64,000 nucleotides of DNA, from the NCBI GenBank assembly GCA_017991595.1, contig JAGOQJ010000004.1, positions 1-64,000 of the forward strand, read 5' to 3'. A program made the position numbers and the translations under genes. Under the pieces are notes generated by a model that was given only the letters and a program-made list of their open reading frames with translations, was not told the origin of the DNA and searched no databases. This DNA comes from Candidatus Didemnitutus sp. GTDB lineage: Bacteria; Verrucomicrobiota; Verrucomicrobiia; Opitutales; Opitutaceae. Below, piece after piece: positions 37,645 to 61,172 of the stretch (position 1 is the first letter of the stretch; each line of letters starts with the position of its first letter).

Positions 37645-37843
37645 GGCGCGGCCGCAGTATGCATATTTTGCGTTCGCGGGACTGCGCATCGGTTGGCCGC
37701 GGCGAGGCGCGGATTGGGGAATATGACGCAAGGCCAACCCATGCGGAGCGCCGGCGCACGCGGCGCCAACCTTAATCGCGCCGGCCGGATCTGCGGTCGC
37801 GCCCGGGCCAAGCGGAAAGACACGGGCGCGGTATCAACGACAA

Positions 37844-46391: not shown

Positions 46392-46727
46392 TCAGGGCTT
46401 CAGCTCGCGGATGAATTTGACGAGATCCTTGGCTTCATCTTCGGACAGCTCGTCCTTGAAGCCCTTCATCGTCGTCTTTCCGTTTTGCACGTAGCCTTCG
46501 AGAATGGCCTTGAGCATCGTGTCGTCCTTCATCTCGGCCTGAACTGCGGGGTCGGTGTAGTCGCGGACCTTGAGCTTCTTGCCCTGCTTGGTCTGCGCCT
46601 TGCCATCGGCGCCGTGACAGGAGGCGCAGGAATTCTCCCAGTTCTCGGCGGCGGTGGCGGCGAAAGCCGTGCCGGCGGTGAAGGCCAGCGCGATGCCAGC
46701 GAGGGCGATCTTGGTGATGGATTTCAT
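46392..46727 (-). CDS. Small periplasmic monoheme cytochrome c
   Basis: The 111-residue class I-type cytochrome has a signal peptide (IALAGIALAFTAGTAFA), a heme site Cys34-Cys37-His38 (CASCH) and a likely axial Met87 in TTMKGFKDEL. The closing helix is EAKDLVKFIRELK. It is a close paralogue of the gene at 48710. It would carry electrons in the periplasm between membrane complexes and the porin-cytochrome unit. The gene has its own downstream terminator. Confidence 0.93.
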   Translation of the reverse strand: MKSITKIALAGIALAFTAGTAFAATAAENWENSCASCHGADGKAQTKQGKKLKVRDYTDPAVQAEMKDDTMLKAILEGYVQNGKTTMKGFKDELSEDEAKDLVKFIRELKP

Positions 46728-46966: not shown

Positions 46967-48469
46967 TCACTTGCCCTGGATGCCGCCGTTGTGGCAGTCG
47001 GCGCAGCGGAGCTCGGCGTCGTATTCGCCGCCGGGGTGCTTGAACTCGAGGCCGCGGGCGGTGAGCGTCGTGAGATCGTCGCCCTTGCCTTGCGCGAGGA
47101 TGATGTGGCAGGAGGTGCAGTCGCTGGCCTTCACCTTCTCGCCGGTGGCGGTGGAGTGCTTGTCGTCGTGGCAGCGGAAGCAGCCGGGCCAGTCTTTGTG
47201 GCCGATGTTGTTCGGGTATTGGCGCCAGTCGGCCTTGCGCTCAGGGAACATCGTCGTGGCGTAGATCTCCTGCACGGCGGCGATGGTCTTGGCGAGGGCC
47301 TCGGGAGCGGCGGTCTTGTATTTGCTCTTGAGGTATTCAGCGATCTTGCCGGGGGCCTCGTCGGAAGTGGTGATCGACTCCTGGATCATGGCGTTGACGG
47401 CCTGGCGCTTCACGTTGGGCAGCTCGAGCGAGATGTGACCGAGGGCCATGGCGCGCTCGACGGAGTCGTTGGCGGTGGGGAAGACGTGGGCGGGGCGGTT
47501 GTGGCAGTCGATGCAGTCCATCTTGCGCACGAGCTCCGCGGGCGGCTCGCCCTTGAAGGTCTCGTTGCGGAAGATCTTCACCTCGCCGTCCTTCTTGTGG
47601 GTGACGCGCATCCAGACGATGTCCTGGCGCTTCTCGTCGGCGGCGTAGTATTCGACGATCTGGTCCTTGCTGACGTGCCAGTGGATACCGTTGAGGGGGC
47701 TGCCGGGGCGGCCGTCGTTGACGCGCATGAGCATGCGGACGGTGTAGGCGGAGTTTTTGCGATCCGAGAGGAAGTGCTCGTAGGTCATGTCGAGGTTGCC
47801 GAGGAACTTCTCGGGCCAGTGGCACTTCTCGCAGGTGTCCTGCGCCGGGCGGAGATTGTGGACGGGCGCGGGGATGGGACGGTTGTAGTTGTCGAGAATG
47901 AAGCCGTAGAGCTGGCGGGTGCCGTTGAGCTTGGCCTTGACGAAGGCGGCGGCGCCGGAACCGACGTGGCACTCGACGCAGCCGACGCGGGCGTGCGCGC
48001 CGCGCTGGTAGGTCTGATACTCGGGATTCATCGCCGAGTGGCAGGCCTGGCCGCAGAAGAGGTTGGACTCGGCGTAGTGGAAGGTCTGGTAGCTGCCGAA
48101 CGCGCTGAGCAGGAGGAAGCCGACGGCGCTGGTGACAAAGAGGATGATGTTGCGGCGCTGGCGCGGATCGTGGAAATCGAGGCGCCACTTGTCAGGCATG
48201 GTGGCAGCGTGCTTGATCGCCCAGCGGCGTTGCGCCCAAGCGCCGAAGAACACGAGAGCCAGACCCACAATGAGGAAACCCGGCGCCACGATATACGTGA
48301 AGATGCCGAGATAGGGGTTCTGGTGGGAACCGGTGAGGTCCATCCAAGCGAGCAGCGCAAAGGAGAACAGGGCGCCGACGGCGATGACGCCGCCGATGGC
48401 GCTGATCCAATTGTTGAAGTGGGAGCGCGGCTGGATGACCGGCTGATGGGATTCCGTGGGAGAACTCAT
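46967..48469 (-). CDS. NapC/NirT-like membrane multiheme cytochrome c (7 heme sites)
   Basis: Predicted quinol dehydrogenase. The 500-residue protein has three membrane helices (about 25-43, 55-76 and 108-126). Heme sites follow: one unusual CX3CH (CGQACH, Cys139-His144, with Met a few residues on) and six CxxCH (CVECH, CEKCH, CIDCH, CFRCH, CTSCH, CADCH). The NapC family normally has four hemes after one helix, so this is an extended relative with three further heme sites in a C-terminal part. It sits between two cytochrome c genes and downstream of the porin-cytochrome genes, and would feed electrons from quinol to them. Confidence 0.88.
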   Translation of the reverse strand: MSSPTESHQPVIQPRSHFNNWISAIGGVIAVGALFSFALLAWMDLTGSHQNPYLGIFTYIVAPGFLIVGLALVFFGAWAQRRWAIKHAATMPDKWRLDFHDPRQRRNIILFVTSAVGFLLLSAFGSYQTFHYAESNLFCGQACHSAMNPEYQTYQRGAHARVGCVECHVGSGAAAFVKAKLNGTRQLYGFILDNYNRPIPAPVHNLRPAQDTCEKCHWPEKFLGNLDMTYEHFLSDRKNSAYTVRMLMRVNDGRPGSPLNGIHWHVSKDQIVEYYAADEKRQDIVWMRVTHKKDGEVKIFRNETFKGEPPAELVRKMDCIDCHNRPAHVFPTANDSVERAMALGHISLELPNVKRQAVNAMIQESITTSDEAPGKIAEYLKSKYKTAAPEALAKTIAAVQEIYATTMFPERKADWRQYPNNIGHKDWPGCFRCHDDKHSTATGEKVKASDCTSCHIILAQGKGDDLTTLTARGLEFKHPGGEYDAELRCADCHNGGIQGK

Positions 48470-48644
48470 GCGCGGAGCGGGGAAAATGGGGAGGACACGG
48501 GCGGCGGCGGAGCGGTCGCGGGGACGGGGGCTCGGGCGGTCGCGCGGGTGCGGGAAGTGAGTCGGTGGCCGCGGGCTCCGTCACGCCGAATGGGCGTCGA
48601 TGCGGGCTGCCCGGCCGGGGCCGACTGCGGGGATGGGAACGAAC

Positions 48645-48686
48645 GTTAAAGAAAGAGCCGACGGAGCATCGGGCTGCCGTCGGCTC
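48645..48686 (-). terminator. Intrinsic terminator after the cytochrome c gene at 48710
   Basis: A perfect 10-bp stem (GAGCCGACGG 48655-48664 with CCGTCGGCTC 48677-48686) followed on the minus strand by TTTCTTTAA. It ends the transcript of the multiheme lipoprotein, porin and cytochrome genes. Confidence 0.8.
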
Positions 48687-48709
48687 GAAAAGTGCCGCGA
48701 GGTGCGGCG

Positions 48710-49045
48710 TCAGGCCTTGAGCTGACGGATGAAGGCGACGAGGTCCTTCGCTTCCTGTTCGGAAAGCTCGTCCTTGAAGCCCTTCATCCGCTCTTTGCCA
48801 CCTTCCTTCACGCCTTCCAGGATGGCGTTGAGCATGGCGTCATCCTTCAGCTCGGCTTGGACTGCAGCGTCCGTGTAGTCACGGATCTTCAGTTTCTTGC
48901 CTTGCTTGGTCTGAGCCTTGCCGTCTTCGCCGTGGCAGGACGCGCAGTTGTTTTCCCAGTTTTCCTGGGCCGTGGAGGCGTAGGCCGCCCCGGTGCCGAA
49001 CGCGAGCGCGAGGCTGGCGAGGGCGATTTTGGTCGTGGTTTTCAT
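48710..49045 (-). CDS. Small periplasmic monoheme cytochrome c (paralogue)
   Basis: A 111-residue protein with a signal peptide, CASCH at Cys34-His38 and likely Met87 ligand in ERMKGFKDEL. It shares long identical blocks with the 46392 protein (DGKAQTKQGKKLK, RDYTD, MKGFKDELSE). It is 38 bases after the porin-like gene and ends in a terminator, so it is probably the last gene of that operon. Confidence 0.93.
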   Translation of the reverse strand: MKTTTKIALASLALAFGTGAAYASTAQENWENNCASCHGEDGKAQTKQGKKLKIRDYTDAAVQAELKDDAMLNAILEGVKEGGKERMKGFKDELSEQEAKDLVAFIRQLKA

Positions 49046-49083
49046 AGGGGAATCAACTGGTGGATGATGCGCCAGCTCGGTGC

Positions 49084-51195
49084 TCAGAAGCGATACAGAA
49101 GTTTCGCCTGGAGCATGTTGGCCTCATAGTCGGCCTTGCCGAGGTAGGCGGAGTCCTCGCTCTTCGCGTAGGTATACTTCACCACGATCGTGGTGCGGCG
49201 GTCGAGCTTGCGCTTGTAGGTGACCGAGGCGATGTCCGTCTGCACATCGGTGCCGTAGGGCGTGTAGGCGGGGGCGTTGTTGATGAACGTGTCGCGGGCC
49301 CCGTAGCTGGTGTAATCAACGTAGAGGTCGCTTTGGTCATCGAGCGCGTAGCCGCTGCTGATGTTGTAGCTGAGGTAGTCGCCCAAGCTGGCAGTGACGA
49401 TGTTGGCCGAGGCACCCGTGGCGTAGACCGCTGGGGTGACGAGTTCCTCGTCGACGAGGTTGACGTTAGCCTGCACGAACCAGCGCGGAGTCGGGTTCCA
49501 GGAGAGGGACTCGCTGTAGATGTGCTGGGTGACGTTCATGCTCTCGAAGAACGCGGTGTCGAACTCCTGGGTCATGGTCGTGCTCTTCATGTAGTCGTAG
49601 CGCGTGACCGAACGGAGGGTCGGCAGGATGCGCCAGGTGAGGCGGACGTTGAAGTCGTTCGTCTCGAGGTCCTGGTTGCTGATGTAGGCCGGATAGCGGT
49701 CGCCGGAAGCGAGGCCATTGGGTGTGGTGTCACGCACGGCGTCGAAGTCGTTTTGACGGACCTTGTAGTAGTATTGCGCGGCGACGGACAGACCGGGGCG
49801 GGCATACCAGCTGGTCGTGAAAGCATACTTCTGAGTCTTGCGGGACATCTCGGTGTCGCGATCGACGGAGATGGCCTGCAGGGGCGTGCCCGGCTCGGCG
49901 ATGAGGGTCTCCTCAAGCTGGCCGTCCGAGTTGGAGATGTCGGCGCGGAAGTTGAAGTTGAAGTTCTTCACGCCGGTGTAGCGCATCTCGAGACCGTAGT
50001 TGTAGGTCTTCCAGTCCTTGTCGGACTCGGCTTCGAGCTCCTCGATGATGGTCGTGGTGACGGGGTTGAAGTTCGTCTCGATCATCTCGGCGACGTTGCT
50101 CCACTCGGTCTTCTCGAAACGCATCGCGGGAACGATGGTGAGGTGCTCCAGCGGGCGATACATCAGGGAGATGTTGGCGATCGTCTGGGTCATCTCGGAT
50201 TCGCCGAGTTCGTGACCGGGAAGGGCGAAGTAACCTTCGTCACGCGCCTGCTTACCGGGATAAGTGGTGCTGAAGGCGGCGTCGAAGTTCGCGCCGACGA
50301 CGCGACTGCCACTGAGGGTGGTGTCGATCGTGGTGCGGGCAACGGCGGTCGTGAGCTTGATCTGCTCCGTGATATCGACGGCATAGGAGCCGCGGAAGTG
50401 GAGCATATCGTAGTCCTGACCTTCCTTGTTCGTCACATAACGATCGGCGGCCGGTTCGGCGACGCGACGACGGGCATAGCGACCGTTGTCGTATTCGCCC
50501 TTCTCATAGCGCGCACCGATCATCCACTCGTTCTTGTCGCCGCGCTTGGACGCGGTGCCTTGGATGATGTGCTTCTTCTCATCGATGCGCATGAACGCAG
50601 GGATGATGTAGCGGTTGACGTTGGGCTCGGTGACGCGGCCGTCGGCCCAGGCGGTCGAATCCTTGTCGCCTTCGCGGGTGACGTAGTCGTAGCGGAGCAC
50701 GAAGCTCGGGAGGTCGGGCTTGGTGAGACCGAGTTCGAGCCAGAGGTTGCCGCGGTCGATCGCCATCTCCTCGTCGGTGATGGTGAAGGTCTTGCCGTTG
50801 ACGGGCCAGACGCCGCCGGTGCCGTCATAGTGCACGCGGGTCTGCTTGTAGCCGAACTTGACGTAGCCGACCTCGTCCTTGGTGACCGTGAGGTCGAACA
50901 GGTAGTCGCCGTTGCCAGCCATGGCCTGGCCGCGGAGTTTGAGGGAGGTGGAGTCGTTGATCTGCTTCGCGTAGCGCAGATCCTCGATGCCGAAGAAGCC
51001 TTCCTTGCGCACTTGGAATTGGCGCTGGAAGCCGGCGCGGTCGCCGTCCTGAAGGACGGAACCGGTGCCGAGCTCGATGTAGTTTTCGTAAACGGGCTCT
51101 TTGTCAGCCGCGTTCAGAGCGGTGGCCAAGCCCAAGAGGCTCGCGCAAGCGAGCAAGGGCCGGCGGACTGAGTGGAGAAAAGCGGATGTTTTCAT
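49084..51195 (-). CDS. MtrB/PioB-like outer-membrane beta-barrel protein
   Basis: The 703-residue protein has a signal peptide (RRPLLACASLLGLATALNA). The rest alternates short amphipathic strands and polar loops (EVGYVKFGYKQTRVHYDG, WMIGARYEKGEYDNGRYARR, TTIVVKYTYAKSEDSAYLG). It ends in LLYRF, the terminal aromatic typical of barrels inserted by BAM. Length and style fit the MtrB/PioB decaheme-associated porins, which hold a multiheme cytochrome across the outer membrane. The N-terminal CxxC of Shewanella MtrB is not present. It directly follows the multiheme lipoprotein gene (24-base gap), which supports the conduit assignment. Confidence 0.75.
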   Translation of the reverse strand: MKTSAFLHSVRRPLLACASLLGLATALNAADKEPVYENYIELGTGSVLQDGDRAGFQRQFQVRKEGFFGIEDLRYAKQINDSTSLKLRGQAMAGNGDYLFDLTVTKDEVGYVKFGYKQTRVHYDGTGGVWPVNGKTFTITDEEMAIDRGNLWLELGLTKPDLPSFVLRYDYVTREGDKDSTAWADGRVTEPNVNRYIIPAFMRIDEKKHIIQGTASKRGDKNEWMIGARYEKGEYDNGRYARRRVAEPAADRYVTNKEGQDYDMLHFRGSYAVDITEQIKLTTAVARTTIDTTLSGSRVVGANFDAAFSTTYPGKQARDEGYFALPGHELGESEMTQTIANISLMYRPLEHLTIVPAMRFEKTEWSNVAEMIETNFNPVTTTIIEELEAESDKDWKTYNYGLEMRYTGVKNFNFNFRADISNSDGQLEETLIAEPGTPLQAISVDRDTEMSRKTQKYAFTTSWYARPGLSVAAQYYYKVRQNDFDAVRDTTPNGLASGDRYPAYISNQDLETNDFNVRLTWRILPTLRSVTRYDYMKSTTMTQEFDTAFFESMNVTQHIYSESLSWNPTPRWFVQANVNLVDEELVTPAVYATGASANIVTASLGDYLSYNISSGYALDDQSDLYVDYTSYGARDTFINNAPAYTPYGTDVQTDIASVTYKRKLDRRTTIVVKYTYAKSEDSAYLGKADYEANMLQAKLLYRF

Positions 51196-51219
51196 CGCAG
51201 TGTCCTGTGAAAGGTGGGG

Positions 51220-52005
51220 TTAGAAGCGGAGGGAGGAGCTGACGTGCGAGCCGTGGACGGCTTCGTGGCAGCCAGTGGACCAGCAGGTGCCGCCGCGGGT
51301 CAGGTAACCGCTCGCGCCGCCGTGCTGACGACCGCCGATGTAGATGTCACCGGTGGACGTGGTTTGCTGATAGTGGCACTGCAAGCAGAGGTTCGAGTTG
51401 CGGGCCTTCAGCATCTTCGCATTGAGCGTGCCGTGCGGGTTATGGCACACGGTGCAGCCTTCGCGGGAGGCCTCGTGTTCGAACACGTAGGGGCCGCCTT
51501 GCGAGGTGTGGCACTTGACGCAGGACGAGTTGATGGCGTCGATGCTCGTGCCGCCCTCGGCGACGGCGTTGCCGGCGTGCGGGTCATGGCAGTCGCTGCA
51601 GGTCATCTTGCCCGAGGCAATCGGATGGGAATTCGGCAGGCTGAACTCGCCGCGCTTCTCCAAGTGGCACTGGTAGCAGGTCTCGGCGGTCGGGTTGAGG
51701 ATCGTGCCGATGCTGCCACCGGCCTTGACGTGCAGGGAACCCGGGCCGTGGCAGGATTCGCAGCCCGTCTCCACCGCGTTGCCGCCGTCGGCGAACAGCT
51801 TGGCGTGCGTGGCGTCAGCGAATTTGTGCGAGACGTCCTCGTGGCACGTCGAGCACTTGCTCGAGCCCACGTAGGTCGCGCCGGGGATGGAAGGCGGTGC
51901 CATGATGGTGCGACTCGTGGTCACACATGACACAAGGAGAAGGCCCCAGATGGCGGCTCCTCCGAAGATTAAGGTGCTTTTAGTCCAGCGCGATGGTGTG
52001 CTCAT
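51220..52005 (-). CDS. DmsE/MtrA-like multiheme cytochrome c lipoprotein (8 heme sites)
   Basis: The 261-residue protein has a lipobox in LLVSC (Cys27). Seven CxxCH motifs follow (CSTCH at 51, then CESCH, CYQCH, CSDCH, CVKCH, CTVCH and CLQCH), and one CX4CH (CWSTGCH, 241-247) near the C-terminus. Spacing with HxxH-type histidines (HDPHAG, HNPHGT) resembles the DmsE/MtrA family, which normally has ten hemes. Paired with the downstream barrel, it is the likely electron plug of an outer-membrane conduit. The lipid anchor would hold it to a membrane, unlike soluble MtrA. It is the first gene of the operon. Confidence 0.87.
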   Translation of the reverse strand: MSTPSRWTKSTLIFGGAAIWGLLLVSCVTTSRTIMAPPSIPGATYVGSSKCSTCHEDVSHKFADATHAKLFADGGNAVETGCESCHGPGSLHVKAGGSIGTILNPTAETCYQCHLEKRGEFSLPNSHPIASGKMTCSDCHDPHAGNAVAEGGTSIDAINSSCVKCHTSQGGPYVFEHEASREGCTVCHNPHGTLNAKMLKARNSNLCLQCHYQQTTSTGDIYIGGRQHGGASGYLTRGGTCWSTGCHEAVHGSHVSSSLRF

Positions 52006-52267
52006 GACTTATAGCTGGTTTGGTTTGGTTTGGTAGACTCCCGTTGGTTGTAGACGGAAACAGGTTTTCAGCTGTGCGAGTGTGCCATAAGGCTGAGCTT
52101 ATGACTGCGCACGGGTTGTGCAGGTGTGTGCAGTGCTTGTGTGGCGTGGAACGCACGGTGGGCGCTGATGGCACGAGGCATGCGATGGTTTATCGGCGCG
52201 CAGGCCACAAAAGCGACTGCATGACAAACTTTGACACTCAAAGAGCAAGGCATGCGCAGCGCAGCGT

Positions 52268-53011
52268 TCACAGGCCGAGAAATTGAATGGCGCAACCGGC
52301 GCACAGCACCAAGCCGCCGGCGATCACATGCGTGTAGCGCTCCCAACGCTGCAACGGCAGCAGGCGGATGCCACGCAACGCAAGCAGCACCGTGACGAGC
52401 ATCGCCGCCACCGTCAGTGCGGTGAACACGAGCACGACCAACGTCATGTCGGTCCATTGGCCTTGAGCCGCGGGATACATCACGAGTGGGATCATCGGTT
52501 CGCACGGCCCGAGCACGAAGATCGTGAAAAGCACCCACGGGGTCAAACGAAACCCTGCCTCCTCGCCGTGCGCGTGAAGATGCAGCGCCTCATGCGCGTG
52601 CGCATGCGTGTGCACCGCCCCACCCTCGTGCGCGTGTGCATGCACATGCGCCTGCGCCCGCAGCGCCTTCTTCAGGCCCCAAGCGAAATACACCGCGCCG
52701 AACGCGATCATCGCCCAGGCCGCCAGATTGCCGCGAAACTCCTCGATCAGCTCCACGCGTTCGAGCCCGTAGCCGAAGATCACGGCGCCCAGCGCCACGA
52801 CGACCGAACTTGCCACGTGCCCGAGCCCGCAGAGCGAAGTCCAAAACACCGTGCGCCGCACCGACCAGCGCCGCGCGCGGCCCATGACGATGAACGGCAG
52901 ATAATGATCCGGGCCGGCGAGCGTGTGCACGACGGCGACGCCCATCGTGCTCAAGAGGAGAATCCAAAAACCGGGGGAACCGAGCGAGGTGGCGTGAATT
53001 TCGGCAAGCAT
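52268..53011 (-). CDS. Probable nickel transporter with His-rich loop (UreH/NicO-like)
   Basis: The 247-residue protein has six hydrophobic segments. Helix 1 holds VVHTLAGPDHYLPF, which recalls the H-x4-D-H metal motif of nickel/cobalt carriers. A later helix holds GPCEPMIPLVMYPA, as in the UreH-like subfamily. Between helices 3 and 4 a loop (about 118-150) is packed with alternating His and Ala. Such loops store or select Ni2+. It sits next to the hydrogenase protease gene, and the [NiFe] enzyme provides the need for nickel. The substrate is inferred. Confidence 0.75.
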   Translation of the reverse strand: MLAEIHATSLGSPGFWILLLSTMGVAVVHTLAGPDHYLPFIVMGRARRWSVRRTVFWTSLCGLGHVASSVVVALGAVIFGYGLERVELIEEFRGNLAAWAMIAFGAVYFAWGLKKALRAQAHVHAHAHEGGAVHTHAHAHEALHLHAHGEEAGFRLTPWVLFTIFVLGPCEPMIPLVMYPAAQGQWTDMTLVVLVFTALTVAAMLVTVLLALRGIRLLPLQRWERYTHVIAGGLVLCAGCAIQFLGL

Positions 53012-53057: not shown

Positions 53058-53588
53058 TCAAAGCGTCTCCGTCGCCAGCCGCGCGGCCAGCGCGTGCATC
53101 GCGGCGACGACCTCGGGCACCGCCGCGGCGACCGCGGGCGAAAGCTCGGTGCACATGGGTTCCACTTCCTCGACGGAGATCGTGTAGAGATGGATGGCCG
53201 GCATCTGGCCGAGCAGGGCCGCGGCCGCGAAAAGATCCTTCACCCCGAAATCGTGCGCACCGAGCCCGCGCGGCAGGTCGCCGACGCGGCGCGGCTGGAG
53301 GAAGGTGATGGTGCCGGCGGGCCGGCCGTCGCGCGTGGCATCAACCATCACGACATCGCTCACGCGCTCGAATTCGAGCAGCAGGTTGATCCCGCCCGTG
53401 CCACCGTCCAGCACTCGCACGCCGAAGAGCGGCGGCTGGGCCTCGAGGTGGTGAATCACGTGGATGCCGACGCCTTCGTCGCCCATGAGCCAGTTGCCCA
53501 CGCCGAGCAGCAGCACGCGGGGCTGGGAAAGCGGAGCGCCGGGGTCCGGCAAAACGACAGGGGAGGAAAGTTCGTGGGTGGAGATCAT
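53058..53588 (-). CDS. [NiFe] hydrogenase maturation protease (HyaD/HupD type)
   Basis: Removes the C-terminal propeptide of the large subunit after nickel insertion. The 176-residue protein has VLLLGVGNWLMGDEGVG (the metal-sensing Glu in DEG), VLDGGTGGINLL, VMVDATRDG and the His in GLGAHDFGVKDL, all family positions. The start at 53588 leaves an N-terminal tail slightly longer than usual. It lies downstream of the hydrogenase genes after a terminator and is followed by the nickel-transporter-like gene 46 bases on. Confidence 0.92.
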   Translation of the reverse strand: MISTHELSSPVVLPDPGAPLSQPRVLLLGVGNWLMGDEGVGIHVIHHLEAQPPLFGVRVLDGGTGGINLLLEFERVSDVVMVDATRDGRPAGTITFLQPRRVGDLPRGLGAHDFGVKDLFAAAALLGQMPAIHLYTISVEEVEPMCTELSPAVAAAVPEVVAAMHALAARLATETL

Positions 53589-53639: not shown

Positions 53640-53673
53640 AAAAAAGATCGGGCGGAGTCGGAAGACTCCGCCC
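53640..53673 (-). terminator. Intrinsic terminator of the hydrogenase structural operon
   Basis: A perfect 10-bp stem (GGGCGGAGTC with GACTCCGCCC, 53650-53673) with a four-base loop; on the minus strand it is followed by GATC and six T's. It lies 57 bases past the cytochrome b subunit gene. Confidence 0.85.
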
Positions 53674-53729
53674 GGCAAGTCTCGCCGGGCGGGCGGCCAC
53701 TTCGTTGGTCGTCGCGCGGCGCATCGGGG

Positions 53730-54509
53730 TCAGATCACGGGTTCGCCCTTGGCGTGCTCGGCGGAGCCGCGCTGGCCGGAAGGCGCGCCGGCTTTACCGG
53801 GGAAACCGGAGACGCCGGACACGTGCGGCGCCTCGACCTGGTGCTTCGCCATGAACTTCCAGCCACCGATGATCGACGTCAGCACGCCGTGCCCTTCCAC
53901 GTAGTCGTGATACATCACGAGATAGACGTGGATGAGCGCGAAGATGCCGAACGCCCAGGTCACCGCGTAGTGGAAGATCCGGAGGTTCTGCTCGCTGCCG
54001 AAGAGCGGGAGCATCCAGGCGAAGAGCTGCGGGAAGAAACTGTCGCTCATCGGGGCCAGCAGGGCGAAGCCCGAGGCCACCTGGAAGAGCGTCAGCAGCC
54101 CCGTGCCGGTGTAGGTGAAGTAGGCCACGGAGTTGTGGCCCATCGTGCGCACCGGCTTGTTCCGCGCCTGCAGGATGTCGACCGTCAGCACTTCCCAGAT
54201 CTGGCGGATCTGCGCGAGCGTGAGCGGGAAGAAATTCCGCCAGTTCGCGTATTTGTTGCCGACGAGCGACCAGTAGAGCCGGAACATGAAGTTAGCGAAG
54301 AACACGTAGCCGGAGAGGAAGTGCACGAAGCGCAGCGTGCCGAACCAGTAGCCGAACGTCGCCTCGTTCGCGTTGAGCAACGCGGGCGGATGCGCGATCA
54401 GGTAACCGGTCGTCGCGAGCACGACGATGCAGAGGGCGTTGATCCAATGGAACCAGCGCACGGGCTGCTCCCAGACGTAAACCCGTTGGTATTCGTTCGA
54501 GGCGTGCAT
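53730..54509 (-). CDS. hyaC: [NiFe] hydrogenase cytochrome b subunit (HyaC/HupC type)
   Basis: Anchors the hydrogenase to the membrane and moves its electrons to quinone. The 259-residue protein has four or five helices with heme-b histidines in PVRWFHWINAL, LRFVHFLSGY, RIFHYAVTWAFG and ALIHVYLVMYHDY, as in the family. The last 30 residues are a Gly/Ala/Gln tail. It lies 13 bases after the large-subunit gene and ends the structural operon. Confidence 0.93.
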   Translation of the reverse strand: MHASNEYQRVYVWEQPVRWFHWINALCIVVLATTGYLIAHPPALLNANEATFGYWFGTLRFVHFLSGYVFFANFMFRLYWSLVGNKYANWRNFFPLTLAQIRQIWEVLTVDILQARNKPVRTMGHNSVAYFTYTGTGLLTLFQVASGFALLAPMSDSFFPQLFAWMLPLFGSEQNLRIFHYAVTWAFGIFALIHVYLVMYHDYVEGHGVLTSIIGGWKFMAKHQVEAPHVSGVSGFPGKAGAPSGQRGSAEHAKGEPVI

Positions 54510-54522
54510 GAGGGCCTCCGGG

Positions 54523-56247
54523 TTACTTCACCAGCAGTTCGTGACGCGCGATCTCCTTCTGGTCCTCGTAGAGATGGACGGCGCAGGCGAGGCACGGGTC
54601 GAACGAGTGGATGGTGCGGATGATCTCGAGTGGCTGTTGCGGATCGTGCACGGGCGTGCCGATGAGCGAGGCCTCGTAGGCGGAGCGCTGGCCCTTGCCA
54701 TCGCGCGGCGAGGCGTTCCAAGTGCTCGGGACGACGAGTTGGTAGTTCGCGATCTTCTGGTCCTTGATGACGATCCAGTGCGCGAGCGCGCCGCGGGGCG
54801 CCTCGGTGGGGCCGACGCCGCGGGCTTCGGCCGGCCAGGTCGCCGGCTCCCACTTCTCTTTCGTGAACGTGCGGGTGTCGCCCGCCTTGATGTTCGCGAG
54901 GAGTTGGTTGAAGAACTCGAGTCCCCACATGGCCGCGAGGCGCGACTCGATCGCGCGGGCCGCGGTGCGGCCGAGCGTCGAGAAGAGCACGGAGGCGGGC
55001 GCCTTGAGCGCGCCGAGGGTGTCGGTGACGGCGCCCTTGATCTGGTCGTGCCCGGCGGCGTAGCCGACGAGCATGCGCGAGAGCGGGCCGACTTCCATGG
55101 CGTGGCCCTTCCAGCGCGGCGTCTTCAGCCACGAGTATTTCTGGTCGACGTCGAGGTGCTCATACGGGGGCTTCGGGCCGGAATACTTGAGGTTGGTCTC
55201 GCCCTTCCACGGGTGACGGCCGCCACTGATGGCGCCGCCCTCGTATTCATACCAAGAGTTGTCGATGAACTCCTGCACGCCCGTGTCGTCCTTGGGATCG
55301 ACGGCATGCACCTCGTTGAGGTTGCGGCCGAGGATGGCGCCGCGCGGGAACTTGAAGCCTTTCACGTCGGCGAAGCCGTTGGTCGGCAGATCACCGTAGC
55401 AAAGGTAATTTTCCAAACCGCCGCCGATGCCGGCCCAGTCGAGATAGAACGGCGCGACGGCGAGCACGTCGGGGATGTAAACCTGCTCCACGAACTCGAG
55501 GCCGCGCTGCAGGGTCTGGCCGACGAAGGCGAGGCGCTCGGCGTTGATGGCGTTGGCCTCGTCGAGGTTGATCGAGCAGGGCGCGCCGCCGACGAGGTAG
55601 TTCGGATGCGGATTCTTGCCGCCGAAGATCGTGTGGACCTTCACGATCTCCTTCTGCCACTCGAGGGCCTCGAGGTAGTGGGCGACCGCCATGAGGTTGG
55701 CCTCGGGCGGGAGCTTGAAGGCCGGGTGGCCCCAGTAGCCGTTGGCGAAGATGCCGAGTTGGCCGCTCTCGACGAATTTCGTCAGGCGTTTCTGCAGGTC
55801 GCTGAAGTAGCCGGGCGAGCTCTTCGGCCACTTCGAGACGCTCTGCGCGAGCTTCGAGGTGGCGGCGGGATCAGCCTTCAACGCGCTCACGACGTCCACC
55901 CAGTCCAACGCGTGCAGATGGTAGAAATGCACCACGTGGTCGTGGATGTATTGCGAGCAGAACATGATGTTCCGGATCAGCTCGGCGTTGGGCGGGATGC
56001 GGATGTCGAGGGCGTCCTCGACGGAGCGCACGGAGGCGAGCGCGTGCACCGTGGTGCACACACCGCAGACGCGCTCGCAGAAGGCCCACGCGTCGCGCGG
56101 GTCGCGGCCCTTGAGGATGATCTCGAGGCCGCGCACCATCGTGCCGGCGCTCCAGGCGTCGATGATCTTGCCGTCCTTCACCTCGGCTTCGATGCGGAGG
56201 TGACCTTCGATGCGGGTGACGGGGTCGACAACAATTCGGGTGCTCAT
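54523..56247 (-). CDS. hyaB: [NiFe] hydrogenase large subunit (group 1)
   Basis: Binds the Ni-Fe(CN)2CO active site. The 574-residue precursor has the L1 motif RVCGVC (Cys61, Cys64) and L2 DPCLACAVH (Cys552, Cys555, His558). A 16-residue propeptide after His558 must be cut off by the HyaD protease. GTMVRGLEIILKGRDPRDAW and SFDPCLACAVH are characteristic of group 1 uptake enzymes. It lies 15 bases after the small-subunit gene. Confidence 0.97.
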   Translation of the reverse strand: MSTRIVVDPVTRIEGHLRIEAEVKDGKIIDAWSAGTMVRGLEIILKGRDPRDAWAFCERVCGVCTTVHALASVRSVEDALDIRIPPNAELIRNIMFCSQYIHDHVVHFYHLHALDWVDVVSALKADPAATSKLAQSVSKWPKSSPGYFSDLQKRLTKFVESGQLGIFANGYWGHPAFKLPPEANLMAVAHYLEALEWQKEIVKVHTIFGGKNPHPNYLVGGAPCSINLDEANAINAERLAFVGQTLQRGLEFVEQVYIPDVLAVAPFYLDWAGIGGGLENYLCYGDLPTNGFADVKGFKFPRGAILGRNLNEVHAVDPKDDTGVQEFIDNSWYEYEGGAISGGRHPWKGETNLKYSGPKPPYEHLDVDQKYSWLKTPRWKGHAMEVGPLSRMLVGYAAGHDQIKGAVTDTLGALKAPASVLFSTLGRTAARAIESRLAAMWGLEFFNQLLANIKAGDTRTFTKEKWEPATWPAEARGVGPTEAPRGALAHWIVIKDQKIANYQLVVPSTWNASPRDGKGQRSAYEASLIGTPVHDPQQPLEIIRTIHSFDPCLACAVHLYEDQKEIARHELLVK

Positions 56248-56262: not shown

Positions 56263-57420
56263 TTAGGATTTCTTCTCGTTGTTGTCGGCCTGTTCGGCCT
56301 GTTCGGCGTTCTCGCCCGGGTGTTCGCCAATCTCGCCGCGCTTGCGGAAGTTGGTCATGACGGCGTGCGCCACGGCGCCGCCGGCCGAGGCCGCGAGGGC
56401 CGCGAGGCCGAGCTTGTCGGCCGTGCTCTCGATGCCAAAGCCGGGGAAGTTCGGCACGCGTTGGTAGAACGGGCCGTTGTCCCAGAAGTTCGCCTCCGAG
56501 CAGCCGATGCAAGGATGGCCCGATTGGATCGGGAAGCTCACGCCGCCGTTCCAGCGGATCGTGCCGCAGGCATTGTAGGTGGACGGGCCGCGACAACCGA
56601 CCTTGTAGAGGCAGTAGCCCTTGCGCGCGTTCTCGTCGTCAAAACTCTCGACGAAGAGGCCGGCGTCGTAGTTCGGGCGGCGGTAGCAGGTGTCGTGCAC
56701 GCGGCGCGAGTAAAAGGCCTTCGGACGGCCAAGGCTGTCGAGCTGCGGGATGCGGTCGAAGGTGAGCAGGTGCACGAGCACGCCAGCCATGACCTCGGCG
56801 ATGGGCGGGCAGCCCTGCACGTTGACGATGGGCTTGCCGGCGATGACCTTCTGGATCGGCGTCGCGGCGGTGGGATTCGGCTTGGCGGCCTGCACGCAGC
56901 CGGAGACGGCGCAGTTGCCCCAAGCGATGACGGCCTTGGCATCCTTCGCGATTTCCTCGGCGATCTGCTTGGCGGTCTTGCCGCCGATGCAGCAATAGAT
57001 GCCGTCGTCCGCGAGCGGCACGGAGCCTTCGATGCAGAGCAGATACTCGCCCTTGTATTTCGTGATGGTGTCGTGGAGGCACTTCTCCGCCTGATGGCCG
57101 GAGGCGGCCATGAGCGTCTCGGTGTAGTCGAGCGAGACCTTGTCGAGGAGGATGTCAGCGACGATCGGGTGCGAGCTGCGGATGAACGACTCGCTGCAGC
57201 ACGTGCACTCCTGGAAATGCAGCCAGACCACGGGGATTCGTTTCTTCGTCTCGAGGGCGGTGACCATCTGGGCCATGCCCGTTTTTTCCAATCCGATGCA
57301 GGCGCCCATCCAGGCGCAGAACTGCATGAACTCGCGCCGGCTCACGCCGCGCGACGTCATGCGTTCGTAGATCGTTTCTTCCTTCTTGGCCGTATGCTGG
57401 GGTTCGGTTTCCTGGAGCAT
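56263..57420 (-). CDS. hyaA: [NiFe] hydrogenase small subunit, oxygen-tolerant (group 1d-like) signature
   Basis: Carries the Fe-S relay. The 385-residue precursor has a Tat signal (SRREFMQFC, twin Arg at 28-29). Around the proximal cluster it reads ECTCCSESF (Cys72, Cys74, Cys75), so the usual Gly is a Cys. A further extra Cys occurs in DGIYCC (Cys143), at the place of E. coli Hyd-1 Cys120. These two supernumerary cysteines are the mark of the [4Fe-3S] cluster of oxygen-tolerant hydrogenases. GNCAVSGC, VQGCPP, TCYRRP, GCRGPSTYNAC and HPCIGCSE supply the other ligands. A weak C-terminal helix and an Asn/Gln/Glu tail close the protein. Confidence 0.96.
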   Translation of the reverse strand: MLQETEPQHTAKKEETIYERMTSRGVSRREFMQFCAWMGACIGLEKTGMAQMVTALETKKRIPVVWLHFQECTCCSESFIRSSHPIVADILLDKVSLDYTETLMAASGHQAEKCLHDTITKYKGEYLLCIEGSVPLADDGIYCCIGGKTAKQIAEEIAKDAKAVIAWGNCAVSGCVQAAKPNPTAATPIQKVIAGKPIVNVQGCPPIAEVMAGVLVHLLTFDRIPQLDSLGRPKAFYSRRVHDTCYRRPNYDAGLFVESFDDENARKGYCLYKVGCRGPSTYNACGTIRWNGGVSFPIQSGHPCIGCSEANFWDNGPFYQRVPNFPGFGIESTADKLGLAALAASAGGAVAHAVMTNFRKRGEIGEHPGENAEQAEQADNNEKKS

Positions 57421-57632: not shown

Positions 57633-58001
57633 ATGCACGAGGTCGGCATCATCGAATCCGCGCTGACGGTGATCCGGCGCGAGGCCCACGCCCATGGAGC
57701 CAGCCGCGTCGACCGGGTCGTGATGCGCATCGGCGCGATTTCCGGTGTCGAGCCCGAGGCCCTGCGCTTCGCCTTCGAGGCGGTCACGCCGGGCGGCATC
57801 GCCGAAGGCGCCGCGCTCGAGATCGAGCTCGTGCCCGCCCGCGTCCATTGCCGCGCCTGCGCCGCGGATTTCACGGTCGAGAGCGGCTTCATCTTCGCCT
57901 GCCCGCACTGCCAGGCCCTCTCCGGCGACGTGCGCAGCGGCCGCGAACTGGAACTCGCCCGACTCGAATTTTCCACCCCTGCGTCAAATGCCCACGCCTG
58001 A
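57633..58001 (+). CDS. hypA: Hydrogenase nickel incorporation protein HypA
   Basis: Delivers nickel to the hydrogenase large subunit with HypB. The 122-residue protein begins MHEVGIIESAL, with the nickel-binding His2, which fixes the start at 57633. The zinc site has two CxxC pairs (CRAC and CPHC, about 75-95). The 3' end overlaps hypB by 14 bases. Confidence 0.95.
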   Translation: MHEVGIIESALTVIRREAHAHGASRVDRVVMRIGAISGVEPEALRFAFEAVTPGGIAEGAALEIELVPARVHCRACAADFTVESGFIFACPHCQALSGDVRSGRELELARLEFSTPASNAHA

Positions 58002-58800
58002 AGAATCCCCCGCCGTTGCTGATGGCGGCGTCCGTATCAATGCCCTGAACGGCGCCGCCTCCTCCCCCACCCGCGCTCTCTCCGCCCCGCTGTCGGCGGA
58101 GATCAGCGCCGCTTTGCAAGCCAGCCCCCGCGGCGAGGTGCAGGTCAAATCCGTCGACCTCAGCCTCCCGTTGCTGGAGAAGAACGACATCCTCGCCGAG
58201 CGTAACCGCGGCTACTTCCTCGGCCGCGGCCTGCTCGCGCTCAACATCGTCTCCTCCCCCGGCGCGGGCAAAACCACCCTGCTCGAACGCACGCTCGACG
58301 AGTTCGGCAAGGAAGTTCGCTGCGCCGTGCTCGTCGGCGACCTTGAGACCGACAACGACGGCCGCCGCCTCAACCGGCCGCACGCCGCCGTCGCGCAAAT
58401 CACGACCGGCACCGTCTGCCACCTCGACGCCGGCATGATCGCCCGCGCCGCCGAATCCATCGACCTCGACGGCGCCCGCGTGCTCTTCATCGAAAACGTC
58501 GGCAATCTCGTCTGCCCCGCCTCCTTTGACCTCGGCGAACAGATCCGCGTCGTCCTGCTCTCGACCACCGAAGGCGAGGACAAGCCGCTCAAGTATCCGC
58601 CGATCTTCAAGTCAGCGCACCTCGTCCTCCTCACCAAGGTCGATGTCGCCGACGCGCTCGGCTTCGACCGCCGCGTCGCCGTCGAGAACATCCGCCGCAT
58701 CGCGCCGCAGGCCGAGATCATCGAGCTGTCCTCCCGCAGCGGCGAAGGCCTCGCGCAATGGTATGACTACCTCCGCGCGCGCCTGCCGCGACGACGCTGA
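57988..58800 (+). CDS. hypB: Hydrogenase nickel incorporation GTPase HypB
   Basis: A GTPase that drives nickel transfer from HypA. The 270-residue protein has the P-loop SSPGAGKTTLLE (about 89-100), GDLETDNDG, the Cys/His metal site in TGTVCHLDAGM, and IENVGNLVCP, then TKVDVAD. The N-terminal 70 residues are variable; they lack the His-rich stretch or CxxCGC motif of some HypBs, so nickel storage is not expected here. Confidence 0.95.
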   Translation: MPTPEESPAVADGGVRINALNGAASSPTRALSAPLSAEISAALQASPRGEVQVKSVDLSLPLLEKNDILAERNRGYFLGRGLLALNIVSSPGAGKTTLLERTLDEFGKEVRCAVLVGDLETDNDGRRLNRPHAAVAQITTGTVCHLDAGMIARAAESIDLDGARVLFIENVGNLVCPASFDLGEQIRVVLLSTTEGEDKPLKYPPIFKSAHLVLLTKVDVADALGFDRRVAVENIRRIAPQAEIIELSSRSGEGLAQWYDYLRARLPRRR

Positions 58801-58868: not shown

Positions 58869-61172
58869 ATGACCGTCGCCTACCCGACCACCGACACGCT
58901 GCTCCGCGTCCGCGGCACGGTGCAGGGCGTGGGTTTCCGTCCCTTCGTGCACCGGCTCGCCCTGCGCCACGGCCTGCGCGGCTGGGTGCGCAACGACGCG
59001 CACGGCGTCCTGCTCCGCGTCGCCGGCGAGGCCGGGTGCATCGCGGCATTCACCGCGGCGCTCACGCGCGAAACCCCGCCGGCCGCGACCATCACCGCCC
59101 TCGAGCCCACCACGCCCACGCCGGCCGACGCGCCCGTCGGCGAGACCTTCGCGATCGAGGCCAGTGAGCTGCCCGCCGCCACCGTGACGGCCGCGATTCC
59201 GGCCGACCTCGCGCTTTGCGCCGAATGCCGCCGCGAGTTGCTCGACCCGGCCGACCGCCGCTCCGGCTATCCCTTCATCAACTGCACGCAATGCGGTCCG
59301 CGCTACTCGCTCATCGAGCGCCTGCCCTACGACCGCGCGCGCACCACGATGCGCCTCTTCGCGCTGTGCCCGGCCTGCGAGCGCGAGTATCGCGATCCGG
59401 CCGACCGCCGCTTCCACGCCGAGCCCAACGCCTGCCCGGCCTGCGGCCCGCAACTCAGCCTGCTCGACCGCGACGGACATGAAATCGCCCGCGGCGGCGC
59501 CGCGCTCTCCGCCGCGATCGTGGCGCTGCGCTCCGGCCGCATCGGCGCCGTCAAAGGCGTGGGCGGTTTCCACCTTATGTGCGATGCCGCCGACGAGACG
59601 GCCGTCGCCGAACTCCGCCGCCGCAAGCACCGCGAGGAAAAACCGCTCGCGGTCATGTTTCCTCACCTCGAATCCGTGCGCGAGCACGCGCAGCTCACGC
59701 CGGCGGACGAGGCGCTGCTGCAATCGCCGGCCGCGCCCATCGTGCTGCTGCCACGTCTCCCCGCGAGTCCGCTCGCCGCGAGCCTCGCCCCGGGCAATCC
59801 GTGGATCGGCGCCCTCCTGCCCTACGCGCCGCTGCATGTGCTGTTGCTCTGGGATTTCGCCCGACCGCTCGTCGCCACCAGCGCGAACCTCTCCGAAGAA
59901 CCGATCTGCACCGACAACGACGAGGCGCGCGCCCGCCTCGCAGGGATCGCCGATTTTTCCCTCGTGCACGACCGGCCCATCGCGCGTCCGGTCGACGATT
60001 CCGTCGTCCGCCGCACCGCCACCGGCGACGCCATTCTCCTCCGCCGCGCCCGCGGCTACGCCCCGGCCCCGCTCGCGCTGCCGGCCGCCCTCGACGCCGT
60101 GCACCTCTGCGTCGGCGCGCAGATGAAGAACACCGTGGCCATCGCCAGCGGCCGCCAAGTCGTGCTCAGCCCGCACCTCGGCGACCTCGGCAACGCGCCG
60201 ACGCAAGCCGTGTTCGAACGCACGCTCGCCATGCTGGGCGAGCTCCACGGCAGCACCGCCGCGGTCGTCGTGCATGACAAGCATCCCGACTACGCCTCGA
60301 CGCTTTTCGCCCGCCGCCTCGGCCTGCCCTGCGTCGCCGTGCAACATCACCTCGCGCACCTGCTCGCCTGCCTGCTGGAGCACGCCCACCCCGCGCACGA
60401 CGTGCTCGGCATCGTGTGGGACGGCACCGGCTACGGCGAAGACGGCACCGTGTGGGGCGGCGAGTTCATCCGCTTGCACGAAGGCCGCGCGACGCGTTTC
60501 GCCCGCCTCCGGCCCTTCCGTCTCGCCGGCGGCGAGGCCGCGGTGCGCGACGCCCGGCGCGTCGCCCTCGGTCTGGCCCACGAACTCGGGCTTTTCTCGG
60601 AGCTGTCCGCGCGTTTCGGTTTCACGCCCAACCAACGCGCCACCCTGCGCCAGATGCTCCAGCAAGGCCTCAACGCTCCGCTTTGCTCCAGCGGCGGCCG
60701 CCTCTTCGACGGCGTCGCCGCATTGCTCGGCCTCTGCGAGCACAACCATTTCGAGGGCCAGGCGCCGTTGCACCTTGAAGCCGCCGCGAGCCGCGCCGCT
60801 GCGGCGGCACACGCCCTGCCGTTCGACATCGTGCCATGTGTGTCGGGCGGCGCCGAGTTCGACGTCGACTGGGCCCCCGCCGTGCGCCAACTCGCCTTCG
60901 CCGGCAAGGCGCCGGAAGAGTTGGCCGCCGCCTTCCACCGCGGTCTGGCCGAGGCGATGGTCGCGGTCGCACGCCGCGCCGGCGTCGGCACAGTCGCCCT
61001 CTCCGGCGGCTGCTTCCAAAACGCCCTCCTGCACGACCTCGCGACGCAGGCCCTGCGCGCGGCGGGTTTCCGCGTGCTCACGCATCGCCAGCTTCCCCCC
61101 AACGACAACTCCATCGCCGCCGGCCAGGCGCTCGGCGCGCTGTGGAATCTCACCACCGTCCACTCCCCATGA
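58869..61172 (+). CDS. hypF: Carbamoyltransferase HypF
   Basis: Makes the thiocarboxamide on HypE from carbamoyl phosphate, the source of the cyanide ligands of the active site. The 767-residue protein has an acylphosphatase domain (about 10-95, RGTVQGVGFRPFVHRLA), and zinc fingers (CAEC, CTQC, CPAC, CPAC between about 117 and 200). A YrdC-like domain follows (AVKGVGGFHLMCDA, KPLAVMFP), and then a Kae1-like domain (VQHHLAHLLACLLEH, WDGTGYGEDGTVWGGEF, SGGCFQNALL). The length is normal. The stop codon overlaps a small ORF by four bases. Confidence 0.97.
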   Translation: MTVAYPTTDTLLRVRGTVQGVGFRPFVHRLALRHGLRGWVRNDAHGVLLRVAGEAGCIAAFTAALTRETPPAATITALEPTTPTPADAPVGETFAIEASELPAATVTAAIPADLALCAECRRELLDPADRRSGYPFINCTQCGPRYSLIERLPYDRARTTMRLFALCPACEREYRDPADRRFHAEPNACPACGPQLSLLDRDGHEIARGGAALSAAIVALRSGRIGAVKGVGGFHLMCDAADETAVAELRRRKHREEKPLAVMFPHLESVREHAQLTPADEALLQSPAAPIVLLPRLPASPLAASLAPGNPWIGALLPYAPLHVLLLWDFARPLVATSANLSEEPICTDNDEARARLAGIADFSLVHDRPIARPVDDSVVRRTATGDAILLRRARGYAPAPLALPAALDAVHLCVGAQMKNTVAIASGRQVVLSPHLGDLGNAPTQAVFERTLAMLGELHGSTAAVVVHDKHPDYASTLFARRLGLPCVAVQHHLAHLLACLLEHAHPAHDVLGIVWDGTGYGEDGTVWGGEFIRLHEGRATRFARLRPFRLAGGEAAVRDARRVALGLAHELGLFSELSARFGFTPNQRATLRQMLQQGLNAPLCSSGGRLFDGVAALLGLCEHNHFEGQAPLHLEAAASRAAAAAHALPFDIVPCVSGGAEFDVDWAPAVRQLAFAGKAPEELAAAFHRGLAEAMVAVARRAGVGTVALSGGCFQNALLHDLATQALRAAGFRVLTHRQLPPNDNSIAAGQALGALWNLTTVHSP

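What the first reader, a model, noticed from the sequence alone, without database searches (positions are those of the whole stretch)
48710..52005. Porin-cytochrome unit in a likely verrucomicrobial genome: multiheme lipoprotein, MtrB/PioB-like barrel and cytochrome c in one operon
Seen: a lipoprotein with eight heme sites, 24 bases upstream of a 703-residue barrel-like protein ending in Phe, then a monoheme cytochrome and a terminator. Known: paired MtrA-like cytochromes and MtrB-like porins carry electrons across outer membranes in Shewanella and in iron oxidisers. Inference: this operon is an outer-membrane conduit of a divergent type, with a lipid-anchored plug and only eight heme sites. 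No outer-surface cytochrome (OmcA/MtrC-like) is visible.
Basis: partly seen in the sequence, partly recalled or inferred. Interest (0 to 1): 0.7.

Follow-up and report, generated by a model that had tools for sequence, protein, structure and literature searches.

The report
Hydrogenase-linked outer-membrane electron conduit
A verrucomicrobial gene block appears to encode an electron wire through the outer membrane (an eight-heme lipoprotein with an MtrB-like barrel) beside genes that take electrons from hydrogen, suggesting hydrogen-fuelled breathing on substances outside the cell; the wire itself was already predicted in this phylum, and I found no paper on its link to hydrogen.

Summary
In detail: an eight-heme lipoprotein, a 703-residue barrel 24 bases downstream, a monoheme cytochrome and a terminator, on the minus strand. 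The lipoprotein is a shortened relative of MtrA (6r2q_A, E 1.5e-40); eight motif and eight other histidines are conserved, fitting eight bis-histidine hemes. The barrel is modelled with 26 strands and matches MtrB (6r2q_B) best. The pair is adjacent in 33 of 33 relatives' loci and co-varies (r 0.87) independently of its neighbours. It is not new: He et al. 2017 described verrucomicrobial porin/eight-heme clusters. The hydrogenase is there in 6 of 6 same-genus loci with enough flank and in 0 of 25 other loci; in 1 of 5 hydrogenase loci of other genera it adjoins the monoheme and ImcH-like genes. Best reading: an H2 to quinone to ImcH/CbcL to conduit to external-acceptor chain whose outer-membrane part is exchanged as a cassette. 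Direction, acceptor and assembly are inferred. New variant of a known kind.

The parts
51220..52005 (-). Octaheme lipoprotein, MtrA-like plug (7 CXXCH + 1 CX4CH, lipobox Cys27)
49084..51195 (-). MtrB-like outer-membrane barrel, 26 modelled strands, C-terminal Phe
48710..49045 (-). cyc1: small monoheme periplasmic cytochrome c
48655..48686 (-). Intrinsic-terminator hairpin after cyc1
46967..48469 (-). ImcH-like inner-membrane quinol oxidase: 3 N-terminal TM segments, 6 CXXCH + 1 CX3CH, NapC/NirT similarity
46392..46727 (-). cyc2: second monoheme cytochrome, similar to cyc1 by eye and by family
37888..40107 (-). CbcL-like protein A: 13 c-heme motifs + b-type (Ni_hydr_CYTB) domain
35458..37647 (-). 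CbcL-like protein B: 11 c-heme motifs + membrane b-type region (PF01292 just below gathering score)
56263..57420 (-). NiFe hydrogenase small subunit (HoxK type; Tat-like SRREF by eye; extra cysteines)
54523..56247 (-). NiFe hydrogenase large subunit
   Evidence: (PF00374 E 2.2e-234)
53730..54509 (-). Hydrogenase b-type cytochrome (HyaC), quinone link
   Evidence: TIGR02125, 163.3 bits vs cut-off 121.5
53649..53674 (-). Terminator-like hairpin after hyaC
53058..53573 (-). Hydrogenase maturation protease (HyaD-like); start uncertain, ORF runs to 53678
   Evidence: TIGR00072 above cut-off
52268..53011 (-). Membrane protein, UreH-like by eye (possible nickel transporter); no Pfam or NCBIfam hit
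57633..58001 (+). HypA-like maturation gene (named by eye)
57991..58800 (+). HypB-like maturation gene (named by eye; start approximate)
58869..61172 (+). HypF-like maturation gene (named by eye)
61325..61702 (+). HypC-like maturation gene (named by eye)
61699..62802 (+). HypD-like maturation gene (named by eye)

Best explanation
A quinone-linked route for electrons from hydrogen to the cell exterior. A Tat-exported membrane-bound NiFe hydrogenase oxidises H2 and reduces quinone through its cytochrome b. The ImcH-like heptaheme protein (and, under other conditions, the two CbcL-like proteins) re-oxidises quinol in the inner membrane. Monoheme cyc1/cyc2 carry electrons over the periplasm. The octaheme lipoprotein, tethered to the outer membrane by its lipid and seated in the 26-stranded MtrB-like barrel, passes them to an external acceptor such as humic quinones or Fe(III). 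Shown: gene content, homology, eight conserved heme sites with eight spare conserved histidines, barrel fold match, octaheme-barrel co-variation, hydrogenase linkage in the genus. Inferred: assembly, order of carriers, outward direction, acceptor.
For: MtrA homology of the octaheme (E 1.5e-40); 16 of its 18 His conserved in 22 of 22 sequences, eight in motifs plus eight others. Barrel model pLDDT 78.8, pTM 0.75, 26 long strands by my count; best PDB match MtrB. Octaheme-barrel distances correlate (Mantel r 0.87; 0.83 after removing the ImcH-like signal), while ImcH-like and cyc1 correlate with each other (0.89) and not with the barrel once the octaheme is accounted for (-0.19, -0.21) (20 hand-picked loci). 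hyaB lies upstream in the same-strand block, with only hyaC, the protease gene and the UreH-like gene between, in 6 of 6 same-genus loci with enough flank: own, L032, L033, L036, L038, L055. In L179, another genus, hyaABCD is followed by cyc1 and the ImcH-like gene with no conduit between (1 of 5 such loci). 12 of 13 genomes with the full-length hydrogenase also have the barrel (Fisher 6.5e-6; outside the genus 5 of 5, p 0.0016; within the family outside the genus p 0.015). ImcH architecture (definition from PMC6295460 passages) and E 7.3e-130 to a Desulfuromonas protein with nearly the same three TM positions.
Against: The small subunit is of the O2-tolerant type and the genome has four COX1-family matches and a pentaheme ORF that looks like ActA by eye, so H2 electrons may normally go to O2. 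No separate outer-surface cytochrome was found. Outside the genus the hydrogenase is not next to the conduit: 0 of 25 loci (several truncated), nor in any of 34 named loci, of which L064 and L065 are truncated same-genus loci. Of five hydrogenase loci of other genera, four (L178, L180, L181, L182; L181 ends soon after hyaC) have neither cyc1 nor the ImcH-like gene beside them; same-genus G011 has the hydrogenase without them in L183 (contig ends) and without a barrel match. Terminator-like hairpins after hyaC and cyc1 argue against one transcript. The octaheme model was unusable, so fit inside the barrel is untested. Profile evidence against canonical MtrB (E 1.6e-12) is only modestly above the TonB control (3.4e-9).
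Confidence: 0.5

Rival explanations
1. The conduit is real but runs inward: it takes electrons from Fe(II), reduced humics or a partner cell (as PioAB/MtoAB are thought to) and passes them to cyc1/cyc2 and an oxidase; the hydrogenase is a parallel donor for aerobic respiration.
For: No separate outer-surface cytochrome found, as in PioAB/MtoAB (PMC6344600 passage); O2-tolerant-type hydrogenase; four COX1 matches; cyc1/cyc2 show weak, below-cut-off matches to cytochrome c6 and CcoP models; CbcL-type proteins occur in reducers and oxidisers (PMC6295460 passages).
Against: An ImcH-like protein is present, and PMC6295460 reports ImcH homologs only from Fe(III) reducers so far; no RuBisCO match in the 87%-complete genome, so Fe(II)-driven carbon fixation by the Calvin cycle is unlikely; in the genus the hydrogenase shares a block with quinol-oxidase-type genes.
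Confidence: 0.2
2. The conduit and the hydrogenase are functionally separate and only neighbours; the conduit serves general (organic-driven) respiration of humics as proposed for lake Verrucomicrobia. (Overlaps in part with the inward rival.)
For: Outside the genus the conduit lies apart from the hydrogenase; 21 of 33 barrel genomes lack a full-length hydrogenase match; terminators separate the units.
Against: Same block in 6 of 6 testable loci of the genus; hyaABCD-cyc1-ImcH-like adjacency in one locus of another genus; co-occurrence outside the genus 5 of 5.
Confidence: 0.3
3. The octaheme lipoprotein faces outward as a surface reductase and the barrel only exports or anchors it (a question of placement, compatible with either direction).
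For: Lipid anchors are typical of outer-surface cytochromes such as MtrC/OmcA (recalled); no other surface cytochrome was found.
Against: It is homologous to MtrA, the plug, not MtrC (DmsE/MtrA model 158.6 bits versus OmcA/MtrC model 14.5 bits, both below cut-off); the barrel matches MtrB best.
Confidence: 0.1

Closest known systems
Verrucomicrobial porin-multiheme cytochrome clusters (He et al. 2017, PMC5615132; section 12 and passages seen)
   Same: Porin with at least 20 predicted strands next to an eight-heme cytochrome in Verrucomicrobia including Opitutus; proposed for electron transfer to humics
   Different: That paper says no homologs of the Shewanella/Geobacter systems are present, and 'hydrogenase' does not occur in its main text; here MtrA/MtrB relatedness, a conserved lipobox, the hydrogenase/ImcH/CbcL neighbourhood and cassette exchange are shown
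MtrAB / MtoAB / PioAB
   Same: MtrA-homologous multiheme partner of an MtrB-fold barrel, adjacent genes
   Different: Eight not ten hemes, CX4CH at the last site, lipobox, below curated family cut-offs, no separate MtrC found
Geobacter OmbB-OmaB-OmcB (Pcc)
   Same: Porin with an eight-heme partner (PMC4245776, abstract start)
   Different: No 12-heme outer cytochrome found here; sequence relation not tested
Geobacter ImcH and CbcL
   Same: Architecture as described in PMC6295460 and strong profile matches in a Desulfuromonas genome
   Different: In one block with a conduit and a hydrogenase; the CbcL-like proteins have 13 and 11 c-heme motifs rather than nine
Ralstonia HoxK / E. coli Hyd-1 membrane-bound hydrogenase
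   Same: Small subunit closest to HoxK 3rgw (E 7.2e-139), both extra cysteines aligned
   Different: Genomic neighbourhood with an outer-membrane conduit

Membership tests
MtrA (DmsE-family decaheme) | Sequence homology to MtrA | tested here: met
   6r2q_A, E 1.5e-40 (the library's chain name reads 'Cystathionine beta-synthase'; entry title 'Structure of the Mtr complex'; that chain A is MtrA is recalled)
MtrA (DmsE-family decaheme) | Curated NCBIfam cut-offs TIGR03508 / NF041028 | tested here: not met
   158.6 vs 192.2 bits; 180.4 vs 325 bits
MtrA (DmsE-family decaheme) | Ten heme motifs | tested here: not met
   eight sites
MtrA (DmsE-family decaheme) | Soluble periplasmic protein without lipid anchor (recalled) | tested here: not met
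   lipobox Cys 22 of 22 in A1, 28 of 30 in A4; lipidation itself untested
MtrB/PioB barrel | Pfam PF11854 match | tested here: not met
   window barrel no hit; 1 of 20 members of A3 hits (E 2e-7); all 10 members of A5 hit
MtrB/PioB barrel | Profile-profile relation above an unrelated-barrel control | tested here: inconclusive
   A5 E 1.6e-12 over 616 columns, A6 E 5e-24 over 534, TonB control 3.4e-9 over 262; canonical MtrB versus the same TonB set 3.7e-5 over 252
MtrB/PioB barrel | 26-strand barrel fold | tested here: met
   26 strands of ten or more residues by my count; top match 6r2q_B; the number 26 for MtrB is recalled
MtrCAB | Outer-surface MtrC/OmcA | tested here: not met
   five matches to PF22113 in the genome, none over cut-off, genome 87% complete. 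Against: scanned as a protein, CbcL-like protein A does pass PF22113 (45.3 vs 30 bits); read as a cross-match of a membrane-anchored heme-rich protein
Verrucomicrobial porin-MHC (He 2017) | Porin plus adjacent eight-heme cytochrome in Verrucomicrobia | tested here: met
Verrucomicrobial porin-MHC (He 2017) | Sequence match to the Trout Bog genes | not tested
   their accessions were not fetched
ImcH | Three N-terminal TM helices, seven heme motifs, NapC/NirT-like part | tested here: met
   PF03264 49.6 vs 24.1 bits; definition from PMC6295460 passages; first motif is CX3CH; not compared with a labelled ImcH
CbcL | N-terminal c-hemes plus b-type membrane half with six TM | tested here: inconclusive
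   c-hemes met; PF01292 58.2 bits for A, 29.4 vs cut-off 30.1 for B; family profile match in Desulfuromonas; a simple hydropathy scan found four segments in A and overlapping ones in B
O2-tolerant membrane-bound NiFe hydrogenase | Two extra cysteines near the proximal cluster | tested here: met
   alignment to HoxK (ECTCC; GCVQ); role of these cysteines recalled
Working trans-membrane conduit | Electron transfer across a membrane | not testable with these tools
   needs biochemistry

The most novel reading that the evidence does not exclude
Members of this Opitutaceae genus respire H2 to extracellular acceptors through an almost self-contained locus (O2-tolerant-type hydrogenase, ImcH-like and CbcL-like quinol oxidases, monoheme carriers, lipid-anchored octaheme/MtrB-like conduit), and evolution swaps the outer-membrane conduit as a plug-and-barrel cassette while keeping the inner-membrane module.
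Probability: 0.4. Interest if true: 0.7.

Novelty: new variant of a known kind. Interest (0 to 1): 0.5.

Why it matters
Electron conduits through the outer membrane are known mostly from Proteobacteria and Geobacter-type bacteria, where inner- and outer-membrane parts are usually encoded apart (recalled). A locus that groups an H2-oxidising enzyme with two kinds of quinol oxidase and a conduit gives a testable hypothesis for what feeds verrucomicrobial conduits, which PMC5615132 links to humics by where they occur. The swapped cassettes offer a natural experiment on which parts must match each other, and the PSCyt1-barrel fusions show another way to attach a carrier to the barrel.

Tried and rejected
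Structure of the octaheme: predicted without hemes, pLDDT 47.5, discarded and not searched. Second-look fold search: library unavailable. Profile comparison as sole proof of MtrB kinship: rejected because the TonB-barrel control also gave E 3.4e-9; the structural ranking was used instead. Rfam scan of the window at gathering scores: 0 matches; tRNA scan: 0. Promoter scan of 44900-58000: 0 found, 1.5 expected, uninformative; terminator scan: 14 found, 9.8 expected, so only the two folded hairpins are used. The search for an outer-surface cytochrome in the genome gave only window genes, a pentaheme ORF (ActA-like by eye), a seven-motif ORF on contig C16 and a weak match in a 56-aa frame. Considered and rejected: a chance run of heme motifs (excluded by conservation) and a TonB-type transporter.
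Full report
What is there. On the minus strand, 52005-51220 encodes a 261-residue lipoprotein with seven CXXCH and one CX4CH motif; 24 bases on, 51195-49084 encodes a 703-residue protein ending in Phe; 38 bases on, 49045-48710 encodes a monoheme cytochrome. A strong hairpin with a T-rich tail follows (z -5.27 for the folded 71 nt).

Upstream on the same strand lie genes for the small and large subunits of a NiFe hydrogenase, its b-type cytochrome (TIGR02125 above cut-off), a maturation protease and a membrane protein I call UreH-like by eye. Divergent from them are hypA, B, F, C and D-like genes, named by eye and conserved in relatives. Downstream lie a 500-residue protein with three N-terminal transmembrane segments and seven heme motifs, a second monoheme cytochrome, and, after about 6.3 kb that includes a PEP-CTERM protein and a histidine kinase/LytR-type pair, two large proteins (29% identical to each other) with 13 and 11 c-heme motifs joined to a b-type membrane part. 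In L032 and L033 of the same genus those two large proteins directly follow the second monoheme gene.

The lipoprotein. A profile of 22 relatives matches chain A of the solved Mtr complex (6r2q_A, E 1.5e-40). The library's chain name is 'Cystathionine beta-synthase', the entry title is 'Structure of the Mtr complex'; that chain A is MtrA, with ten hemes, is recalled. The query's last six heme sites align with the last six CXXCH of that chain, so two hemes are missing relative to MtrA. It stays below the curated cut-offs of the decaheme families. Of its 18 histidines, 16 are conserved in 22 of 22 sequences of A1; in A4 fifteen of these are in 30 of 30 and one in 29 of 30. Eight are motif histidines and eight are not, which is what eight bis-histidine hemes need; this supports the CX4CH motif as a real site. 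The lipobox Cys is in 22 of 22 and 28 of 30; the residue after it is never Asp in either set, which by the E. coli rule (recalled) means sorting to the outer membrane.

The barrel. It has no Pfam or NCBIfam hit at E 0.01, and a profile of 14 relatives has no PDB sequence match up to E 1. AlphaFold2 on 20 sequences gives pLDDT 78.8, pTM 0.75 and, by my count of strands of ten or more residues, 26 strands. Foldseek ranks chain B of the Mtr complex first: E 4.8e-15, TM 0.67/0.72, rmsd 6.6, 11% identity. The other 49 rows shown (of 282 with E up to 0.001), mostly TonB-dependent transporters, have TM of at most 0.50. Profile-profile comparison is weaker evidence than it looks: canonical MtrB (A5; 10 of 10 members hit PF11854) E 1.6e-12 and other decaheme partners (A6, hand-picked) E 5e-24, but eleven TonB barrels of the same genome also give 3.4e-9; canonical MtrB against that TonB set gives 3.7e-5.

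Conservation. The barrel occurs in 33 of 95 genomes searched, own included. By translated match the octaheme is followed by a barrel on the same strand in 33 of 33 fetched loci (30 of 33 by scripted ORF picking). Not every barrel there is an intact ORF (for example L083).

Co-variation. For 20 loci with all four genes, chosen by hand, protein distances of octaheme and barrel correlate at 0.87, ImcH-like and cyc1 at 0.89, and barrel with ImcH-like or cyc1 at 0.51-0.52. Given the ImcH-like distances, octaheme-barrel remains at 0.83; given the octaheme, ImcH-like-barrel is -0.19 and cyc1-barrel -0.21. In G007 and G006 the ImcH-like and cyc1 proteins are 68-76% identical to the window's, the octaheme 56-59% and the barrel 23-25%: the pair has been exchanged inside a conserved neighbourhood. 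This is the best evidence here that the two work as one unit. Shared ancestry is not corrected for beyond the permutation and partial tests.

Hydrogen link. hyaB lies in the same-strand block upstream, with only hyaC, the protease gene and the UreH-like gene between it and the octaheme, in the own window and in L032, L033, L036, L038 and L055: all six loci of the genus with enough flank. L031, L034 and L057 (same genus) are truncated there. Outside the genus 0 of 25 loci have it (several truncated), and none of the 34 named loci, of which L064 and L065 are the truncated same-genus ones. Of five hydrogenase loci from other genera, one (L179) has hyaABCD followed by cyc1 and the ImcH-like gene without a conduit; the other four (L178, L180, L181, L182) have neither beside them, L181 ending soon after hyaC. 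Same-genus G011 has the hydrogenase without cyc1 or ImcH-like in the stretch held (L183) and no barrel match. Full-length hydrogenase matches (81% identity or more) occur in 13 of the 95 genomes (19 have some match), and 12 of those 13 have the barrel (Fisher 6.5e-6; outside the genus 5 of 5, p 0.0016; within the family outside the genus p 0.015); relatedness is not otherwise corrected for. The small subunit is closest to HoxK (3rgw, E 7.2e-139) and aligns at both extra cysteines of O2-tolerant enzymes (their role is recalled).

Inner-membrane parts. PMC6295460 (passages) describes ImcH as three N-terminal TM helices plus seven heme motifs with partial NapC/NirT similarity, and CbcL as nine c-heme motifs plus a b-type membrane half; its table lists Verrucomicrobia with four CbcL-type and one ImcH homologs. 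The window's 500-residue protein fits the first. Its family profile finds one protein in a Desulfuromonas genome (E 7.3e-130) with TM segments at nearly the same positions but only five CXXCH plus one CX3CH. The CbcL-like profile finds a 617-residue protein with nine c-heme motifs there (E 1.8e-117). No sequence labelled ImcH or CbcL by experiment was compared. Scanned as a protein, CbcL-like protein A also passes the MtrC/MtrF domain cut-off (PF22113, 45.3 vs 30 bits), although the genome search scored that region below it (26.1); since it is fused to a membrane b-type domain I read this as a cross-match of heme-rich sequence, not as an outer-surface cytochrome.

Prior art. PMC5615132 (section 12 read; other passages) already reports verrucomicrobial porins of at least 20 strands next to eight-heme cytochromes, with homologs in Opitutus, and proposes electron transfer to humics; the word hydrogenase does not occur in its main text (supplements not seen). 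PMC6344600 (passages) again lists putative conduits in Verrucomicrobia. Searches listed no paper evidently on a verrucomicrobial hydrogenase-conduit locus; the library lacks most subscription papers and I opened only four of the listed papers (PMC5615132, PMC6344600, PMC6295460 and PMC12388122, the last by passages).

Verdict. The conduit pair is a known predicted kind whose kinship to MtrAB is shown here; its hydrogenase/ImcH/CbcL setting and cassette exchange look new. It is tempered by an O2-tolerant-type hydrogenase, four COX1 matches and the missing surface cytochrome; absence of RuBisCO speaks against autotrophic Fe(II) oxidation.

Noticed in passing
L085, L086, L089, L090, L091, L092, L094, L096 (barrel ORF after the octaheme): The barrel carries an N-terminal monoheme domain, PSCyt1 (PF07635) in the three of eight tested, with the heme motif seen in all eight: a cytochrome-porin fusion beside the octaheme. 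The barrel part matches A3 at E 5.8e-72 versus 1.2e-4 for the TonB control.
   Followed up: partly
L055, L057 (G007, G006): Neighbourhood like the window's but a different octaheme-barrel type (barrel 23-25%, octaheme 56-59% identity to the window), indicating cassette exchange.
   Followed up: yes
L034, L045, L073: Two octaheme genes (L034, L073) or two barrel genes (L034; L045, one of them short) in one locus, possibly duplicated conduits.
   Followed up: no
L040, L081, L084, L087 upstream of the octaheme: Large 9- to 13-heme ORFs next to the conduit in more distant Verrucomicrobia, candidates for the outer-surface cytochrome missing in the window.
   Followed up: no
L128: A record titled Candidatus Omnitrophota carries octaheme, a barrel, a 9-heme protein and an ImcH-like gene; the system may reach beyond Verrucomicrobia, unless the record is misbinned.
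   Followed up: no
window 28959-33878 (-): 1639-residue ORF that by eye has Sel1-like repeats, a long coiled coil and a LysM-like C-terminal end; function unknown.
   Followed up: no
window 41032-44929 (+): Two-component-propeller histidine kinase (PF06580, PF07495) and a LytR-type regulator (by eye) lie between the second monoheme gene and the CbcL-like pair; could regulate the block.
   Followed up: no
L176:1859-3250 (own genome, C16): Seven-motif multiheme ORF whose C-terminal part looks by eye like out-of-frame sequence, possibly a frameshifted gene.
   Followed up: no
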